The notes below the pieces were generated by a model that had not been told where the DNA came from, ran no database searches, and saw only the letters and a list, made by a program, of their open reading frames with translations. The translations under genes and the position numbers were made by a program. A stretch of 64,000 bases of DNA from Gammaproteobacteria bacterium (lineage in GTDB: Bacteria; Pseudomonadota; Gammaproteobacteria; Xanthomonadales; Xanthomonadaceae), in contig JANXRY010000008.1 of NCBI GenBank assembly GCA_025356635.1, forward strand, positions 1 to 64,000. Reading direction: 5' to 3'. Below are positions 3,949 to 9,775 of this stretch, in pieces (the stretch's first letter is position 1; every line of letters begins with the position of its first letter).

Positions 3949-4255
3949 TTGGCCGTCGTTCCCCGTTACACCGCTGTCCTGCGCCGACTGCATTGGGGCA
4001 TGTTCATGCTCGTGTTGCTGGCCTACCTGCTGATCGAACTGCGGGGCTATGCGCCGCGCGGCAGCGAGTTGCGTACTGGCCTGATGCGCACGCATATCCT
4101 CGCCGTTCGCCGGTAACCACGACCTGCACGAGGCGATCGAGGACATCCACGGCGAGCTTGGCGACATCTTCTACGGTGTGATCGGCCTGCACATCGCCAT
4201 TGCTCTCTTCCACCACTTCGTCCGCCGGGATGATGCGCTGCGCCGGATGCTCTGA
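3949..4255 (+). pseudogene. Cytochrome b561 remnant with internal deletion and frameshift
   Basis: The first part, from TTG 3949 with AAGGA upstream, encodes 55 residues typical of a b561 N-terminus (RRLHWGMFMLVLLAYLLIEL, then RGSELRTGLMRTH) and stops at 4114. A different frame then encodes the family's C-terminal helix (GVIGLHIAIALFHHFVRRDD, then ALRRML) and stops at 4253-4255. About 70-80 central residues, including the second and third helices with their heme ligands, are missing. Two recognisable ends in two frames with no middle indicate a deletion that also shifted the frame. An intact protein would be an inner-membrane diheme electron carrier; this one should not function. Confidence 0.85.
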
Positions 4256-4351
4256 TGGCTCAGGCCGCGAAGCCGTAATAGAACCGGCAGAGTTCCCGCT
4301 GTCGCTCTGGACTCTACGAGCCGGTCACAGGGTAGGTAAACCCCGCCCTAT

Positions 4352-4591
4352 TCAAGGCGCCTGCGTTCTCTGCAACAACGCCGCCGGCTCAACAGCGAGC
4401 GCCTTGGCGATTCTTTCTATGTTGTAGATCGTGACGTTCTTTTCGCTTCGTTCCAGCATGCCCACGTAAGTTCGATGGACACCGGCCCGTTCGGCCAATT
4501 GTTCCTGCGACAAGCCGAGCGCCATCCGTCGCATGCGGACATGGGCTGCGAAGACTTCGACCAGAGGGCATTCGTGGGGCTTGAGCGCCAT
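4352..4591 (-). CDS. Small XRE-family transcriptional regulator
   Basis: The 79-residue protein is almost entirely one helix-turn-helix domain: the stretch RMALGLSQEQLAERAGVHRT is a classic Cro/C1-type recognition unit, followed by YVGMLERSEKNVTI. Such stand-alone regulators occur as controllers of restriction-modification or toxin genes, but no partner is adjacent: a dead cytochrome gene lies downstream and a membrane-protein operon starts divergently at 4709. It could regulate that divergent operon. Starting at ATG 4591 gives a protein of the usual length. Target unknown. Confidence 0.85.
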   Translation of the reverse strand: MALKPHECPLVEVFAAHVRMRRMALGLSQEQLAERAGVHRTYVGMLERSEKNVTIYNIERIAKALAVEPAALLQRTQAP

Positions 4592-4708
4592 CCCAAGAAT
4601 GTCGTGGGTTGCATACCATGATTCGACATACTAAGATTAGCAATGTCGGCAGGGGATGAATGAGCGAACACACCTCACGAGTGAGGTGCGACACCACAGG
4701 GGGCGTGC

Positions 4709-5281
4709 GTGCACTGGCGCGATGTGATCGGCGTAATGGCCGGCGTAGTGGCGCTGTCTGCGCTGATTCCCTACGCCCGCAGCATCCTGGCCGGGCATAC
4801 CAAACCGAACCGTGCCAGCTGGTGCATCTGGTCGCTGGTCGGCATCGTATTGGCTGCCAGCTACAAAGCATCCGGGGCCGATGCCACGTTCTGGATCGCC
4901 GTTGCCTACGCGGTTAATCCACTTACCGTCGCGCTGCTGTCCATTCGCTATGGCGTGGGCGGCGCAAGCCGACTCGACCTGATCTGTCTGGCCGTGTGCC
5001 TGCTGATCCTGCTGCTATGGTGGCGGCTGCGTTCCGCACCGGTGGCGTTGTTTTTGACACTTTGCGTTGATGCGCTGGGCGCGTTGCCTACGCTGCGCAA
5101 GGCTTGGCAAGACCCGCGCAGCGAAGATCAACTGGCCTGGGGCATAGCCTGCGCCGCCGCTTTTCTCAACCTGTTCGCCATCGACTCGCCGAAGCCGCAG
5201 GTCTGGCTGTATCCGGTTTATGCCTTCCTCGTCACGGCCCTGATCTACGCCTTGTTGCTGCGGCAAAGGCGCACCGCATGA
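4709..5281 (+). CDS. Multi-spanning membrane protein, PQ-loop-like
   Basis: The 190-residue protein is very hydrophobic with about six to seven predicted membrane segments. Its first part (GVVALSALIPYARSILAGHT, then KPNRASW) has the P-Y and P-N-R-x-S-W pattern of PQ-loop/SemiSWEET-like bacterial proteins, and LFLTLCVDALGALPTLRKAW repeats a similar turn. The start is GTG 4709, preceded by AGGGGG. Its stop overlaps the ATG of the SET-domain gene by 4 bases, so translation is probably coupled. The substrate, if it is a transporter, is unknown. It is the first gene of an unusual four-gene accessory operon. Confidence 0.8.
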   Translation: MHWRDVIGVMAGVVALSALIPYARSILAGHTKPNRASWCIWSLVGIVLAASYKASGADATFWIAVAYAVNPLTVALLSIRYGVGGASRLDLICLAVCLLILLLWWRLRSAPVALFLTLCVDALGALPTLRKAWQDPRSEDQLAWGIACAAAFLNLFAIDSPKPQVWLYPVYAFLVTALIYALLLRQRRTA

Positions 5282-5853
5282 TGCGCTGGCGGCATCCACA
5301 GCTCGCGCCCGGCGACAGCAGCGGCTACGGTCTCGGGGTGTTCGCCAGCGCGCCGATCCGCAAGGGTGAAGTGCTGCACGTACTGGGCGGCGCCAAAGTG
5401 TCGGTGGGCGATCTGGTCGCACGCACCCTGCGCGGCGAGGAACGCTGCGATGATCCATTGCAGATCGGTCGGCGCACATATCTGGTGTTGGACGACGCAT
5501 CGCGCCTGTTCAATCACGCCTGCGCCCCCCCCGCAGGCCTGCGCAAAGCCAGCGAACTTTTCGCCCTGCGCGACATCCGCGCCGGCGAGCAAATTACGTA
5601 CGACTACGCCATGACAGTCGCTCCTACCGATTGGTCGATGCCTTGCCAGTGCGGTTCACGCCACTGTCGAAAAATCATTGGCGACGTGACGACAGTTATA
5701 CCGGCACAACGTCGCGAATACGAACGAGCGGGCGCGGTGCAGCGCTACATGCGCGCCGTGCAACGGGAACTGGATGCTGGCACTTACCGCATCCCTCGTT
5801 ACGAGGTGCTAGCGATGGCGAAGATCAATGCCATGCCAGGAAATAACCGGTGA
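5278..5853 (+). CDS. SET-domain protein (putative lysine methyltransferase)
   Basis: The 191-residue protein shows SET-domain signatures: SSGYGLGVFASAPIRKGEVL near the start, SRLFNHACAPP (the NH-x-C substrate/AdoMet block), AGEQITYDYA and a post-SET cysteine cluster CQCGSRHCRKII. Such domains use S-adenosylmethionine to methylate lysines; bacterial substrates are mostly unknown. The family's usual RFxNHxCxPN is here RLFNHACAPP. The start is the first of two tandem ATGs at 5278, overlapping the upstream stop as ATGA. Its own stop overlaps the next gene's GTG. The function of the operon is not established. Confidence 0.85.
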   Translation: MMRWRHPQLAPGDSSGYGLGVFASAPIRKGEVLHVLGGAKVSVGDLVARTLRGEERCDDPLQIGRRTYLVLDDASRLFNHACAPPAGLRKASELFALRDIRAGEQITYDYAMTVAPTDWSMPCQCGSRHCRKIIGDVTTVIPAQRREYERAGAVQRYMRAVQRELDAGTYRIPRYEVLAMAKINAMPGNNR

Positions 5854-6800
5854 TCCCGACCTTTCCGACCATGCACCCGATCACGCTGGAGATTCGCCCG
5901 GCGCTGCAGGCTCACCTCTCGCTATATCCGCCGTACTCTGACTTCGGCCATACCGCGCTGTGGGCGTGGGACAAATCCGGGCACTCCGGCGTGGCAATGC
6001 TGCATGGAAATTTGGTGGTGTTATTCCATACTACCGCCACCGCCACCGCCACCGCCACCGAGCGATTTTTTTACTCCTTCCTCGGTCACGAATGCGTGGA
6101 TGCTGTCGCAGACGTGCTGCTAGAAAGTTCCGCGCAGGCGGGCTATCCGGTCGAGCTTCGGTTGGTGCCGGAAGAGGTCGCACTTCTGCTGAATCCTGCA
6201 CGTTTCGAAATCATCGAGGATAGCGATCACCACGATTACGTGCTGACCTGCGAAGACCTCACCACCTACTCAGGAAGCCGCTACCGCCGCCAACGCAAAT
6301 GGGTGAATCAGTTCAACCGAGTCAATGGCTGCGAAATCAGTACGCTGAATCTTGAATCGAATACCACACACAAACACATCACAGTGCTGAGCGATGTGTG
6401 GCGGGATAATCGGTGTGCTGCCGAAAGACCCATCGAAATCGATGGGCTATGGGGCTGCGGCGATTTTCCGATCCACCGATTGGTTTCACATGCCGAGCAT
6501 TTGGGGCTCTTCGGCATCGGCATCTGGAGTAGCGCTAGCCTTATTGCTTGCGGCATCGTCGAACCCCTGCCCGGCGACTGGGCGATGTTCCACTTCTGGA
6601 ACGCAGACGTCCGCCACGGTGGCGTGTACGAGGTGCTGATGCAGGAAACCGCCAAGGCGATGCTGGCGCAGGGCCGCACGCGGCTGAACTTTCAGGAAGA
6701 CCTGGGGCTGTCGGGGTTGCGCCACAACAAACTCAGCTATCGGCCTGTTGGCTTCCTGAAGAAATACACCGTACGGTGGCGACAAGAGAGAAAACCATGA
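5850..6800 (+). CDS. DUF2156-family (GNAT-fold) acyl- or aminoacyl-transferase-like protein
   Basis: The 316-residue soluble protein resembles DUF2156, the domain that forms the C-terminal part of phosphatidylglycerol lysyltransferases (two GNAT-like folds using aminoacyl-tRNA). Features pointing this way are the paired basic segment YSGSRYRRQRKWVNQFNR in the middle and, near the end, NFQEDLGLSGLRHNKLSYRP, the usual acceptor/CoA-like block. It lacks the N-terminal membrane half of MprF. GTG 5850 is chosen because AGGAAA lies 6 bases upstream and it overlaps the preceding stop; ATG 5871 is an alternative. A hexanucleotide repeat encodes a Thr-Ala run near residues 62-70. The substrate is unknown. 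Confidence 0.7.
   Translation: MIPTFPTMHPITLEIRPALQAHLSLYPPYSDFGHTALWAWDKSGHSGVAMLHGNLVVLFHTTATATATATERFFYSFLGHECVDAVADVLLESSAQAGYPVELRLVPEEVALLLNPARFEIIEDSDHHDYVLTCEDLTTYSGSRYRRQRKWVNQFNRVNGCEISTLNLESNTTHKHITVLSDVWRDNRCAAERPIEIDGLWGCGDFPIHRLVSHAEHLGLFGIGIWSSASLIACGIVEPLPGDWAMFHFWNADVRHGGVYEVLMQETAKAMLAQGRTRLNFQEDLGLSGLRHNKLSYRPVGFLKKYTVRWRQERKP
6033..6059 (+). repeat. In-frame hexanucleotide microsatellite (ACCGCC)
   Basis: Four and a half copies of ACCGCC encode alternating threonine and alanine inside the DUF2156 gene. Copy-number change in whole units would alter length by two residues without shifting frame. Confidence 0.9.
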
Positions 6801-6979
6801 ATCAGAAGAAGCTTCCGTATATCGTGCCGGTGACCATCGAGATCAGGGTGTCGCAGATGCCGCCCGGGCAGATCGGCTTGTTCGCGGTGCGCCGCCTGAA
6901 GCCGCGCACCATCATCGCCAGAACGAATGGCTGGGCGAACGCTCTTAGAGCACCGCCTCCAAGCCTTTGCGATCGATAA
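6797..6979 (+). pseudogene. Truncated second SET-domain gene
   Basis: ATG 6797 overlaps the stop of the DUF2156 gene by 4 bases, so this was a fourth coupled gene. The 60 codons encode a SET-domain start, VPVTIEIRVSQMPPGQIGLF followed by AVRRLKPRTIIARTNGW, that parallels the GVFASAPIRKGEVL region of the gene at 5278. After about residue 46 the sequence becomes unrelated (ALRAPPPSLCDR) and stops. The loss point coincides with the 3' end of the toxin-antitoxin module at 6945. The NHxC block and post-SET cysteines are missing, so it is unlikely to be active. No remainder is found beyond the module. Confidence 0.65.
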
Positions 6980-7271
6980 GGTCGAGCAGCTTGAGCGAAG
7001 CTCCGCTCGGCTTCTTCTCGCCGATCTCCCACTTCTGAACCGTCGACGCGCTGATATTCAGGATGGCCGCAAACACCGCCTGGCTGACCTGCGCATGCTT
7101 GCGGATCGACTTGATCTTGCGGTAGCCGATCGCCGGGACATCGAGATTGCACAGTGCATCGTACTCGTGCATGCGGCGCGCACTGATCACGCCAGCGCGG
7201 CGCAGGTCCGCCGCGGTGTTGTGCACTTCATCAAGGATCCGACTACGGGGCTTGGTCGTCTTCGTCGCCAT
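6945..7271 (-). CDS. XRE-family antitoxin (HigA/NadS-like)
   Basis: The 108-residue protein has a C-terminal helix-turn-helix (HAQVSQAVFAAILNISASTV, then QKWEIGEKKPSG) typical of antitoxins that follow a RelE-type toxin and repress their own promoter. Residues 1-50 would contact the toxin. It starts at ATG 7271, inside the 3' end of the toxin gene (29-bp overlap), giving coupled translation in toxin-first order. The likely operator is the palindrome at 7650-7668. The module interrupts a SET-domain gene and so looks acquired. Confidence 0.88.
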   Translation of the reverse strand: MATKTTKPRSRILDEVHNTAADLRRAGVISARRMHEYDALCNLDVPAIGYRKIKSIRKHAQVSQAVFAAILNISASTVQKWEIGEKKPSGASLKLLDLIDRKGLEAVL

Positions 7272-7638
7272 GGCATATCTCCACTATGGAATGGGTCGCC
7301 AAGGCGCTGGCGATCGCTTTGTCATCGAGCCGCAACAGATCCTTGGCGATCTCCTGGAGGGCTTGCAGCTCGGATTGATCGATATTGGCGCGTTCGTTCT
7401 TGTCGAAGCCAAACATAAAATACCATCGGTTCCCCAGATTCGTAGCAACTAACGTACGCGCTGCGCCGCGTTTTCCGCGGCCAGCAGGCGCGATCCGCTT
7501 TTTCACCACCTGCCCGCCGAGATGGGCGTCTATCAAGCCTTGTTCCATTTCCGCGATGGATCGACACAAGTCGGCATCGGTCAGGCTGGATTTCCTCATC
7601 CAGCGGGTAAAAGTAGCCGTTCTGAATGCGCGGTTCAT
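7243..7638 (-). CDS. RelE/HigB-superfamily toxin
   Basis: The 131-residue protein matches the RelE-like family that accompanies XRE antitoxins: it has an N-terminal helix region (LCRSIAEMEQGLIDAHLGG), the basic stretch VVKKRIAPAGRGKRGAARTL and the strand NRWYFMFGFDKNERANI. These toxins usually act as ribosome-dependent or free mRNA nucleases. A longer reading from ATG 7647 is possible, but that ATG sits directly against the -10 box, upstream of the expected transcript start; ATG 7638 fits a leaderless mRNA and is preferred. The antitoxin follows with overlap. Confidence 0.85.
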   Translation of the reverse strand: MNRAFRTATFTRWMRKSSLTDADLCRSIAEMEQGLIDAHLGGQVVKKRIAPAGRGKRGAARTLVATNLGNRWYFMFGFDKNERANIDQSELQALQEIAKDLLRLDDKAIASALATHSIVEICHGDEDDQAP

Positions 7639-7647
7639 CAAAGCCAT

Positions 7648-7676
7648 ACTATATCACCAGGTGATATAACACTCAA
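7648..7676 (-). promoter_or_regulatory. Promoter and palindromic operator of the RelE/XRE module
   Basis: On the minus strand TTGAGT (7676-7671) and TATAGT (7653-7648) are separated by 17 bases. A near-perfect palindrome, TATATCACC-A-GGTGATATA (7650-7668), fills the spacer and overlaps the -10 box, as expected for autorepression by the antitoxin. The start codon at 7638 lies 9 bases after the -10 box. Confidence 0.8.
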
Positions 7677-7732
7677 GGCACGAATTTTACCCCGTGCAAC
7701 GCCAGACGCGACGACAACTTGAAGCGCTTGCT

Positions 7733-9775
7733 CTAAGCCGCAAATCCGTAACTACGCAACAACGCATCGGGCTCGGGTTCACGGCCACGAAACGCGATGA
7801 AACTTTCCAGCGCCGGCCGCGAGCCGCCGACGGCGAGGATTTCGCGTCGATAGCGCTCGCCGGTCGCGGCATCGAACACGCCGGCTTCCTCGAACGCAGC
7901 AAAGGCATCGGCGCTCAGCACTTCCGCCCATAGATAACTGTAGTAACCGGCCGCGTAACCGCCGGAAAAAATATGCGTGAACGCATGCGGCCCACGATGC
8001 CAGGCCGGTGGCGGCAATACCGCGACTTCGCGCCGAACTTCGTCGAGAATTTCCAGTGTGCGTTGTCCGCATGTCGGCTCGAATTCCAGATGCAGGCGGA
8101 AATCGAACAAGCCGAATTCCAGTTGTCGGACCAGGAACAGGCCGGCGTGGAAATAACGCGCCGCCAGCATCTTTTCATACAGCGCTTGCGGGAGCGTTTC
8201 GCCGGTCTGCCAATGTTTGGCGAAACTATCGAGCGCCACGCGCTCCCAGCCGAAGTTTTCCATGAACTGGCTTGGCAACTCGACCGCATCCCATTCGACG
8301 CCATTGATGCCGCCGACGCTCGGCCAATGCACGTCAGTGAGCAGATGGTGCAGGCCATGGCCGAATTCGTGGAACAGGGTCAGCACGTCGTCGTGGGTGA
8401 GCAGCGATGGCTTGCCGTCGCCGGGCGGGGCGAAATTGCAGGTCAGGAAGGCGATCGGACGACGCGAGTTCGCGCCATCCAGCAACGGCGTTCGGCAGAC
8501 ATCCATCCAGGCGCCGCCACGCTTGCCGGCGCGAGTGAAGTGATCGAGATAAACGCCGGCGCGAACCCGGCCGTCGGCGTCGAGCACATCGAAGAACTGC
8601 ACGTCTGGATGCCAGACATCGACATCGTGGCGTTCGACCAGGCGCACTCCGAATACGCGTTCGGTCAGCGCAAACAGGCCGGCCACGACTTGCGGCAAGG
8701 GAAAATAAGGCTTGAGGTCTTCCTCGGAAAAATCGAAACGGCGCTCGCGCAATTTTTCGCTGGCGTAGGCGACGTCCCAGGGTTGCAAATCGTCGATGCC
8801 GAGTTCAGCGGCGAAAGCACGCAATTCGACCAACTCATGTTCGGCCACCGGTTTGGCGCGGGCAGCGAGATCGCGCAGGAAAGACAGCACGCGCTCGGGT
8901 GTGCCGGCCATCTTGTCGGCCAGCGAGAGTTGCGCGCTCGACGCGAAGCCGAGCAGGTTCGCCGTCTCGTGACGCAGCGCGAGGATCTCGCCGATGCGCG
9001 CGGAGTTGTCGAATTGGCCCGCATGCGGACCTTGCTCGGAGGCACGAGTGTTGTACGCCGTGTAGACCACCTCACGCAGGTTGCGATCATCGGCGAAAGT
9101 CAGGATCGCCTGCACCACCGGGCCCTTGAGCGTTGCCAGATGGCCGGGCCGTTGCTTGTCTTTGGCCGCATGCGCCAGCATGGTGCGCGCGGAATCGGGC
9201 AAGCCGGCCAGCTCAACCTCGCTCACCGGGCGCGTCCAGGCATCGGTGGCATCGAGCACGGCTTCCTCGAATTCCGTTTCAATTCGGCTCAGCCGATTCT
9301 GGATTTCACGAAAACGCGAACGCGCTGGTTCTTCGAGCGCTACGCCGGACAAGCGGAAATCGCGCAAGCTGTCGTCGACAATGGTTTTTTGCGCACGATC
9401 TAGCGCGGCGAACGCCGGTGCGTTGCGCACGACTTCGGTGGCGAGAAACAACTCGCGGTTCTGGCCGAGTTCGGTCGAATGCGCGGTGATCTTCTCCAGT
9501 GCCGCCGAATAGACCTCGCGCAGTTGCGGCGAATCCTTCACTCCATGCAGGTGCGAGACCGGGGCGAAGCTGCGGCCGAGACGTTCCTCCAATCGTTCCA
9601 GCGGCGCGATCAGGCTATTGAAATCGCGCGCGGCCGGATCGGCCACGAGCCGCTCGACTTCCACGTGGTAGTCGGCCAGTACTGCTTCGATGGCGGGAAG
9701 GACATGTTCCGGCGCGATCGCCGAAAACGCGGGTAGTTCGCCGTCGGCGAGCAGGGGGTTGGGCGTAGTATTCAT
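7733..9775 (-). CDS. prlC: Oligopeptidase A (M3 zinc metallopeptidase)
   Basis: This is a cytoplasmic M3-family endopeptidase that degrades signal peptides and other oligopeptides. The protein has 680 residues, the length of the E. coli enzyme. The zinc site HEFGHGLHHLL lies near residue 466, followed by the downstream ligand block GVEWDAVELPSQFMENF. The start was set to ATG 9775 (MNTTPNPLLADGELPAF), where family similarity begins; the upstream open frame is not family-like. It diverges from the cNMP-patatin gene, with 47 bases between the starts. Confidence 0.96.
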   Translation of the reverse strand: MNTTPNPLLADGELPAFSAIAPEHVLPAIEAVLADYHVEVERLVADPAARDFNSLIAPLERLEERLGRSFAPVSHLHGVKDSPQLREVYSAALEKITAHSTELGQNRELFLATEVVRNAPAFAALDRAQKTIVDDSLRDFRLSGVALEEPARSRFREIQNRLSRIETEFEEAVLDATDAWTRPVSEVELAGLPDSARTMLAHAAKDKQRPGHLATLKGPVVQAILTFADDRNLREVVYTAYNTRASEQGPHAGQFDNSARIGEILALRHETANLLGFASSAQLSLADKMAGTPERVLSFLRDLAARAKPVAEHELVELRAFAAELGIDDLQPWDVAYASEKLRERRFDFSEEDLKPYFPLPQVVAGLFALTERVFGVRLVERHDVDVWHPDVQFFDVLDADGRVRAGVYLDHFTRAGKRGGAWMDVCRTPLLDGANSRRPIAFLTCNFAPPGDGKPSLLTHDDVLTLFHEFGHGLHHLLTDVHWPSVGGINGVEWDAVELPSQFMENFGWERVALDSFAKHWQTGETLPQALYEKMLAARYFHAGLFLVRQLEFGLFDFRLHLEFEPTCGQRTLEILDEVRREVAVLPPPAWHRGPHAFTHIFSGGYAAGYYSYLWAEVLSADAFAAFEEAGVFDAATGERYRREILAVGGSRPALESFIAFRGREPEPDALLRSYGFAA

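What the first reader, a model, noticed from the sequence alone, without database searches (positions are those of the whole stretch)
4709..6979. Translationally coupled membrane protein-SET-DUF2156-SET operon
Four genes overlap by exactly 4 bases at every junction, so their products are likely made in fixed ratio. The combination of a PQ-loop-like membrane protein, one intact and one truncated SET-domain protein and a soluble DUF2156 aminoacyl/acyl-transferase-like protein is not one I know. A system that methylates and acylates a lysine or amine-bearing product and exports or imports it is one reading. This is the best candidate here for an undescribed system.
Basis: partly seen in the sequence, partly recalled or inferred. 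Interest (0 to 1): 0.65.

Follow-up and report, generated by a model that had tools for sequence, protein, structure and literature searches.

The report
Imported SET–transferase–membrane gene cassette
A small imported gene cassette in this bacterium couples a membrane protein, a SET-type methyltransferase and an MprF/FemX-like transferase; some relatives of the transferase sit beside polyamine-making genes in Patescibacteria, so the cassette may decorate and move small amines.

Summary
The operon is real: A (4709-5281, seven hydrophobic segments), B (5278-5853, SET) and C (5850-6800, DUF2156/LPG_synthase_C) overlap by 4 bases at each junction. D (6797-6979) is a 60-codon stub; calling it a truncated SET is plausible, not shown. 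Such overlaps are common here, so 'fixed ratio' is weak. The operon is foreign: a ~3.5-kb insert with an HTH gene and HigBA between xth and prlC, absent from the 9 same-genus stretches that hold both flanks. C's seven best relatives in a genome scan are Patescibacterial. C folds like 2hqy, MprF, FemX and streptothricin aminoacyl-tRNA enzymes. The trio was seen nowhere else, but SET and C-type genes lie next to, or one gene from, each other in three other loci, and an A-type gene overlaps a SET gene by ATGA in one. C-type genes lie within 6 kb of polyamine enzymes in 8 of 22 Patescibacterial regions (controls 0 of 20, 1 of 20), often near EamA transporters; three SET genes also sit with polyamine genes. 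Best reading: a small-amine tailoring and transport cassette (0.4). Substrates are inferred; B falls outside the polyamine-linked SET group, C's tree position is unsure, and the window holds no polyamine gene of the kinds tested.

The parts
4233..7720 (.). inserted segment between xth (exonuclease III) and prlC (oligopeptidase A), carrying all of the cassette; left edge as judged against L167 (against L168 the match ends at about 3844)
   Evidence: blastn against same-genus loci L167 and L168; operon genes not found by tblastn in 13 of 13 same-genus stretches, 9 of which hold both flanking genes
4352..4591 (-). divergent XRE-type HTH regulator gene, possible regulator of the cassette (role inferred)
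   Evidence: Pfam HTH_3 6.4e-15; DNA 75% identical to a Cupriavidus plasmid HTH gene
4709..5281 (+). gene A: 190-aa membrane protein, seven hydrophobic segments, two weakly similar halves; member of a family common in Patescibacteria
5278..5853 (+). gene B: 191-aa stand-alone SET-domain methyltransferase with NHxC, YDYA and post-SET CxCx4C
   Evidence: Pfam SET 1.6e-10; alignments; PDB relatives MLL1 and BurB
5850..6800 (+). gene C: 316-aa soluble DUF2156/LPG_synthase_C tandem-GNAT transferase
   Evidence: Pfam PF09924 1.2e-18; AlphaFold model pLDDT 89.1, pTM 0.86; 2hqy Z 31.3, MprF Z 17.6, Sba18 Z 16.6, FemX Z 16.5
6797..6979 (+). gene D: 60-codon stub, possibly the 5' end of a second SET gene (not proven)
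6945..7271 (-). HTH antitoxin gene (HigA-like; name by position beside the toxin)
   Evidence: Pfam HTH_3 4.1e-8, MqsA_antitoxin 2.3e-4
7243..7647 (-). RelE-family toxin gene (HigB-like); the TA pair resembles one on a Hydrogenophilus plasmid (68.6% DNA identity)
   Evidence: Pfam RelE 1e-41

Best explanation
A horizontally acquired cassette that tailors and moves a small amine. C, a soluble transferase of the MprF/FemX fold, joins an aminoacyl or acyl group to a primary amine, most likely a polyamine or a close relative. B, a stand-alone SET methyltransferase, puts methyl groups from SAM on the same or a related small molecule. A carries substrate or product across the membrane, taking the place that an EamA transporter has in Patescibacterial clusters. 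The host's own metabolism would supply the amine. Shown: the coupled genes, families, C's fold, foreign origin, and the neighbourhoods of relatives. Inferred: every substrate, a shared substrate, the use of aminoacyl-tRNA, and the direction of transport.
For: C's seven best relatives among the 23 loci of a scan of 84,980 species are Patescibacteria. Near C-type genes lie pyruvoyl arginine decarboxylase, ODC/ADC-fold decarboxylases, SpeD and arginase-family genes, and EamA transporters. Polyamine enzymes lie within 6 kb of C-type genes in 8 of 22 Patescibacterial regions against 0 of 20 A-type regions (p 0.004) and 1 of 20 SET regions (p 0.02). SET and C-type genes are neighbours in L027 and one gene (EamA) apart in L046/L096 and L109. 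L109 joins SpeA-type decarboxylase, deoxyhypusine-synthase-like, arginase-family, SET, EamA and C-type genes; L267 joins arginase-family, SET (4-base overlap), EamA, deoxyhypusine-synthase-like and SpeD-like genes. L286, from the viral collection, has SET directly before a SpeD-type gene. An A-type gene overlaps a SET gene as ATGA in L180. Precedents: BurB, a SET enzyme that methylates free methionine (PMC12542666; abstract, and part 1 of section 4); GNAT-fold aminoacyl-tRNA transferases that acylate small molecules (PMC12945691, passages). The host genome has an AdoMet_dc gene and two Orn/Arg-decarboxylase-fold genes on other contigs.
Against: No polyamine gene of the tested kinds lies in the 64-kb window. 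B falls outside the tree group that holds most polyamine- or EamA-linked SETs; its nearest row, L130, follows what reads by eye as an argS gene. In the tree of C-type proteins, as drawn with a midpoint root, C groups with six Firmicutes and Desulfonatronospira rows, not with the Patescibacterial ones (85/84, no starred set), although its nearest rows by path are Patescibacterial. The trio was not seen elsewhere. The 30 A-type loci examined show no SET, C-type, EamA or polyamine gene. Genome-wide co-occurrence of SET and C-type genes in 379 Patescibacteria is about what chance gives (6 shared genomes, 4.5 expected). Two of the six-gene clusters cited were noticed because SET or C-type genes led there. 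The polyamine profiles were built from genes seen beside C-type or SET genes, which favours that side of the comparison.
Confidence: 0.4

Rival explanations
1. The three genes are unrelated cargo of one mobile island, coupled only because compact operons form easily; there is no shared substrate.
For: The trio was seen nowhere else. The insert also carries a TA pair and an HTH gene that resemble plasmid genes. Four-base overlaps are common here (7 of 28 pairs, the operon's own two included). The 30 A-type loci examined had none of SET, C-type, EamA or polyamine genes within about 1.5 kb, and one class I methyltransferase hit. None of 29 SET loci from Gammaproteobacteria had an A- or C-type gene within about 1.5 kb.
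Against: SET and C-type genes lie within one gene of each other in three other loci, with SETs of different tree branches. A rough expectation for the 30 C-type loci is 0.03 (assuming 900 genes a genome and the 78 SET matches); 2 were observed, one of them in the genome through which the search was aimed. A-type+SET pair in L180 with the same ATGA overlap.
Confidence: 0.3
2. Envelope and protein modification: C adds an amino acid to a lipid or peptidoglycan precursor like MprF or FemX, and B methylates lysine in a protein.
For: C's fold matches MprF and FemX almost equally well (Z 17.6 and 16.5). B keeps the SET and post-SET motifs of protein lysine methyltransferases, and the SET profile's best PDB matches are MLL-type histone methyltransferases.
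Against: C lacks the membrane domain of MprF (316 aa, soluble fold throughout). Patescibacterial neighbours are small-amine enzymes. C's closest solved relative, 2hqy, has no assigned function in its title.
Confidence: 0.15
3. B is a BurB-like methionine S-methyltransferase and the cassette makes and moves a sulfonium compound.
For: BurB is the second-best PDB match of B in a single-sequence search (41.7 bits over residues 60-135), is close in size, and acts on a free amino acid (PMC12542666).
Against: BurB reads LLLHSC where B reads LFNHAC. The SET profile scores MLL1 at 98 bits and BurB at 59.5. Other steps of a sulfonium pathway were not noticed in the genes read around the cassette (no dedicated search was made).
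Confidence: 0.1

Closest known systems
Polyamine gene clusters of Patescibacteria (pyruvoyl or PLP decarboxylases, SpeD, arginase-family, deoxyhypusine-synthase-like), seen; related SpeD/SpeB/SpeY clusters in PMC10407285 (passages)
   Same: A C-type transferase and, in L109, a SET gene, with an integral membrane transporter, in one cluster
   Different: The window has no biosynthetic gene, uses an A-type membrane protein instead of EamA, and its SET is on another tree branch
DUF2156 protein of Bacteroides thetaiotaomicron, PDB 2hqy
   Same: Same length class and fold as C (Z 31.3, rmsd 2.6, 292 residues aligned)
   Different: 24% identity; unknown function
MprF / A-PGS / L-PGS aminoacyl-phosphatidylglycerol synthases
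   Same: Pfam family and fold of the C-terminal domain
   Different: C has no N-terminal flippase domain; 10-16% identity
Streptothricin aminoacyl-tRNA-dependent peptide synthases Sba18/Sbb17 (PDB 9wqw-9wqy)
   Same: Same fold class, small-molecule acceptor; Z 16.1-16.6
   Different: 11-13% identity; use of tRNA by C untested
BurB, SET-domain methionine S-methyltransferase (PMC12542666)
   Same: Small stand-alone bacterial SET enzyme; precedent for a free small-molecule substrate
   Different: Local match only; differs at the NHxC motif

Membership tests
SET-domain methyltransferase (B) | SET domain profile match | tested here: met
   PF00856 1.6e-10, 41.7 bits over cut-off 22.4
SET-domain methyltransferase (B) | NHxC motif, DY motif with tyrosine, post-SET CxCx4C (motifs recalled) | tested here: met
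   NHAC, YDYA and C123, C125, C130 in alignments A6 and A8
SET-domain methyltransferase (B) | SAM-dependent methyl transfer to a known substrate | not testable with these tools
   needs enzyme assay
DUF2156 / LPG_synthase_C (C) | family profile match | tested here: met
   PF09924 1.2e-18, 67.7 bits over cut-off 27.5
DUF2156 / LPG_synthase_C (C) | tandem-GNAT fold | tested here: met
   model pLDDT 89.1; 2hqy Z 31.3, rmsd 2.6, 292 aligned
MprF lysyl-phosphatidylglycerol synthase | N-terminal multi-helix flippase domain | tested here: not met
   C is 316 aa, all within the soluble fold
Aminoacyl-tRNA-dependent GNAT-fold transferase | conserved lysine near the aminoacyl group (FemX Lys305, PMC12945691) | tested here: inconclusive
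   K294, K304, K305 invariant in 11 of 11 aligned family members; structural equivalence not examined
PQ-loop / SWEET-type membrane protein (A) | Pfam PQ-loop or SWEET profile match | tested here: not met
   no such hit at E 0.1 in any of 20 family members scanned
PQ-loop / SWEET-type membrane protein (A) | seven TM helices as two similar halves | tested here: inconclusive
   seven hydrophobic segments; internal repeat HH E 0.0011; model too poor
Polyamine tailoring cluster | polyamine biosynthetic gene beside the transferase | tested here: not met
   none of 7 polyamine-enzyme profiles hits in the window; met for relatives in 8 of 22 Patescibacterial regions
BurB methionine S-methyltransferase | methylates free methionine | not testable with these tools
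   only local sequence similarity shown

The most novel reading that the evidence does not exclude
Stand-alone SET-domain proteins, known mainly as protein lysine methyltransferases, include a class that works on polyamines or related small amines together with an MprF/FemX-fold transferase that aminoacylates them and a dedicated transporter. Such sets occur in scattered Patescibacteria, a SET-SpeD pair is carried by a contig of the viral collection, and one portable version has moved into a gammaproteobacterium.
Probability: 0.27. Interest if true: 0.75.

Novelty: new variant of a known kind. Interest (0 to 1): 0.5.

Why it matters
If the small-amine reading holds, it gives a function to a group of orphan proteins (stand-alone DUF2156 proteins of Patescibacteria) and another non-protein role for SET enzymes beside BurB. 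It would also point to modified polyamines that could be looked for directly. The small operon could be tested in E. coli. In the PMC library of freely licensed papers, none held both 'DUF2156' and 'SET domain' or both 'polyamine' and 'DUF2156'.

Tried and rejected
Single-protein scans of viral contigs with C and B found no relatives, and the C-family alignment found none there either; tblastn of B in the phage collection gave no match. PADLOC gave nothing for A-D, so a known defence system is not indicated. NCBIfam gave nothing for A, B or C. The 29% match of A in same-family genome G288 was inspected and dropped as spurious: no SET or C-type gene was seen there among the frames read, which look antisense. 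A-family relatives on Burkholderia and Paraburkholderia plasmids (14 records): no SET or DUF2156 gene is annotated in the two annotated neighbourhoods viewed; a third has no annotation. Of 29 SET loci fetched from Gammaproteobacteria, none had an A- or C-type gene within about 1.5 kb; in five of them my ORF selection also lost the SET gene. In 20 SET regions (17 gammaproteobacterial, 3 Patescibacterial) refetched with up to about 6 kb on each side, none had an A- or C-type gene, one had an ODC-fold decarboxylase hit, and one lost its SET ORF. No target-site repeat was found at the island ends: no shared 9-mer in the two end windows, only imperfect repeats. The model of A (pLDDT 50) was not used for any fold search. 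The idea that D is a truncated SET was neither confirmed nor excluded. Two of the 40 loci (L101, L105) lost their C-type ORF in my ORF selection and count as blanks. The 22 regions hold 23 of the 30 matches; seven weak, partial or end-of-contig matches were not refetched. The A-type and SET control regions are 20 each of the 30 loci that their searches returned. A search for at least three of five terms around lysylphosphatidylglycerol synthetase, polyamine, SET, gene neighbourhood and DUF2156 gave one paper, not relevant by its listing.
Full report
OBSERVATION. Three junctions overlap by four bases: A-B ATGA, B-C GTGA, C-D ATGA. Start codons fit relatives for C and A. B is SET and C is LPG_synthase_C/DUF2156 by Pfam. 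A has no Pfam, NCBIfam or PDB match. Its seven hydrophobic segments and a weak internal repeat (HH E 0.0011 against 0.065 or worse in 8 column-shuffled controls) fit, but do not prove, a PQ-loop-like plan. D is a 60-codon stub whose GLFAVRRLKPRTII stretch resembles the start of a SET domain, at scores barely above shuffled controls. Four-base overlaps are possible in 7 of 28 same-strand neighbour pairs of the window, two of the seven being A-B and B-C, so the overlaps alone say little.

A FOREIGN ISLAND. A-type and C-type genes are single in the host assembly. Among 299 genomes of the order, host included, A was matched in the host and, weakly and spuriously, in one other. C's wider family was matched in 18 of 369 genomes of the class, host included, the best other match at 27% identity. 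Of 21 same-genus genomes searched with PrlC, host included, 20 gave a match, some only to a distant paralogue; 13 stretches from other genomes were fetched. None holds the operon, and 9 hold both flanking genes xth and prlC. Alignment with L167 places the insert at about 4233-7720; against L168 the left match ends at about 3844. G+C of the insert is 0.597 against 0.632 and 0.637 beside it. It also carries an HTH gene and a TA pair whose best plasmid DNA matches are 75% (Cupriavidus) and 69% (Hydrogenophilus). The host's other SET gene groups with SETs of its own family (100/98) and B does not.

RELATIVES OF C. A profile scan of 84,980 species, with two peptide patterns, gave 23 loci; the best seven are Patescibacteria (27-31% identity), followed by a Bacteroidales and a Thiotrichales genome. 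In a sample of 379 Patescibacteria 26 genomes have the family, 30 matches. In a 38-row tree C has no starred place: as drawn it groups with six Firmicutes and Desulfonatronospira rows (85/84), while its nearest rows by path are Patescibacterial. AlphaFold gives C at pLDDT 89.1. Solved relatives are 2hqy (Z 31.3), MprF and L-PGS (17.3-17.6), Sba18/Sbb17 of streptothricin biosynthesis (16.1-16.6) and FemX (16.5). K294, K304, K305, N280 and D284 are invariant in 11 of 11 aligned members. A's best seen relative is Patescibacterial too (42%, L213), but A was searched only in the order, in plasmids and in 239 Patescibacteria, 48 of which have the family.

NEIGHBOURS. I annotated 40 loci, the window included, with profiles. 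SET was found in 4 of 40: the window, L027 (Thiotrichales; next to a frameshifted C-type gene), L096 (= L046, Parcubacteria) and L109, the last two with an EamA gene between SET and C-type. EamA was found in 11 of 40, an A-type gene only in the window. Within 1.5 kb of the 30 matches: EamA in 9, a polyamine enzyme in 5, a class I methyltransferase in 6, SET in 2. In 30 A-type loci: 0, 0, 1, 0. In 30 SET loci: EamA in 2 (both the C-type-linked loci), a polyamine enzyme in 2 (one of these and L133). Within 6 kb, polyamine enzymes appear in 8 of 22 C-type regions (23 of the 30 matches), 0 of 20 A-type regions and 1 of 20 SET regions, that one being L267; the SET set leaves out the two loci near C-type genes (Fisher p 0.004 and 0.02). 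Pfam confirms representatives: PvlArgDC 4.6e-29, Orn_Arg_deC 1.1e-45, AdoMet_dc, Spermine_synth, Arginase, EamA. Caution: the profiles were built from genes found beside C-type or SET genes.

SET GENES WITH POLYAMINE GENES. L109: SpeA-type decarboxylase, deoxyhypusine-synthase-like (PF01916 1.2e-35), arginase family (5.8e-53), SET, EamA, C-type. L267: arginase family and SET overlapping by four bases, EamA, deoxyhypusine-synthase-like (3.9e-96), AdoMet_dc (4.8e-6). L286, a 109-kb contig of the viral collection: SET, then AdoMet_dc (1e-24) 15 bases on. L180: an A-type gene and SET overlap as ATGA. In an 81-row tree the SETs of L096, L109, L129 (beside EamA), L133 (= L267) and L286 fall in one 15-row group whose defining split is weak (86/93, drawn open); B falls outside it with L130 (100/79) and L137 (97/76), and L027 is elsewhere too. 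Either different SET branches joined C-type genes independently, which would favour a functional link, or the pairings are loose. Whole-genome counts do not help: 6 of 379 genomes have both, about 4.5 expected.

MECHANISM (inferred). By its fold C would take an aminoacyl group from tRNA, or an acyl group, and pass it to an amine held between its two GNAT domains, as proposed for FemX and DhpH-C (PMC12945691, passages). B would methylate the same or a related amine from SAM; SET enzymes can take a free small molecule, as BurB does with methionine (PMC12542666, abstract and part 1 of section 4). A would move substrate or product. The host has an AdoMet_dc gene and two Orn/Arg-decarboxylase-fold genes on other contigs, so amines of this kind are likely at hand. 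Clusters of SpeD-type decarboxylases with SpeB or SpeY, and SpeD-derived decarboxylases in the candidate phyla radiation, are in print (PMC10407285, passages); the words EamA, acyltransferase and transporter do not occur in that paper's main text.

VERDICT. A real, coupled, horizontally acquired operon whose complete gene combination I did not find elsewhere; two paper searches found no text joining DUF2156 with SET domains or with polyamines. The amine-tailoring reading is the best supported but rests on the neighbours of relatives at roughly 25-35% identity; the unrelated-cargo rival remains serious.

Noticed in passing
L286:3941-4867: A 109-kb contig of the viral collection carries a SET gene directly followed by a SpeD-type AdoMet decarboxylase homologue, with a class I methyltransferase gene after it.
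   Followed up: partly
L115-L120 (e.g. L115:5320-6977): In six Patescibacterial loci the C-type transferase gene is convergent with, and overlaps by a few bases, a class I SAM methyltransferase gene, as if a different methyltransferase took the place of SET.
   Followed up: partly
L113:3304-5973 and other C-type loci: Many C-type genes in Patescibacteria stand beside a recurring set: a ~270-280-aa membrane protein and a ~95-aa protein (neither with a Pfam hit in L113), a histidine kinase and often a response regulator.
   Followed up: partly
window 6033-6056: An (ACCGCC)n tract in C codes a TATATATA-type stretch absent from the ten aligned relatives and lying in a low-confidence loop of the model; possible site of repeat-length variation.
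   Followed up: no
L027:8294-9150: The C-type gene next to the SET gene in the Thiotrichales genome is split into two overlapping frames (frameshift or assembly error); a second, intact C-type gene lies on another contig (L026).
   Followed up: no
L186 and L310 (genome G501): A gammaproteobacterial SET gene lies beside an ODC-fold PLP decarboxylase homologue and what reads by eye as an aminotransferase-like gene, another small-molecule context for a SET protein.
   Followed up: partly
L039:2788-6667 (Paraburkholderia symbiotic plasmid): A SET domain in one frame with a HAD-family hydrolase, next to a phosphoserine aminotransferase gene and near a DMT transporter gene.
   Followed up: no
window 6944-6963 and 7718-7737: A 20-nt imperfect inverted repeat (75%) flanks the toxin-antitoxin pair, the outer arm at the right edge of the island.
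   Followed up: no
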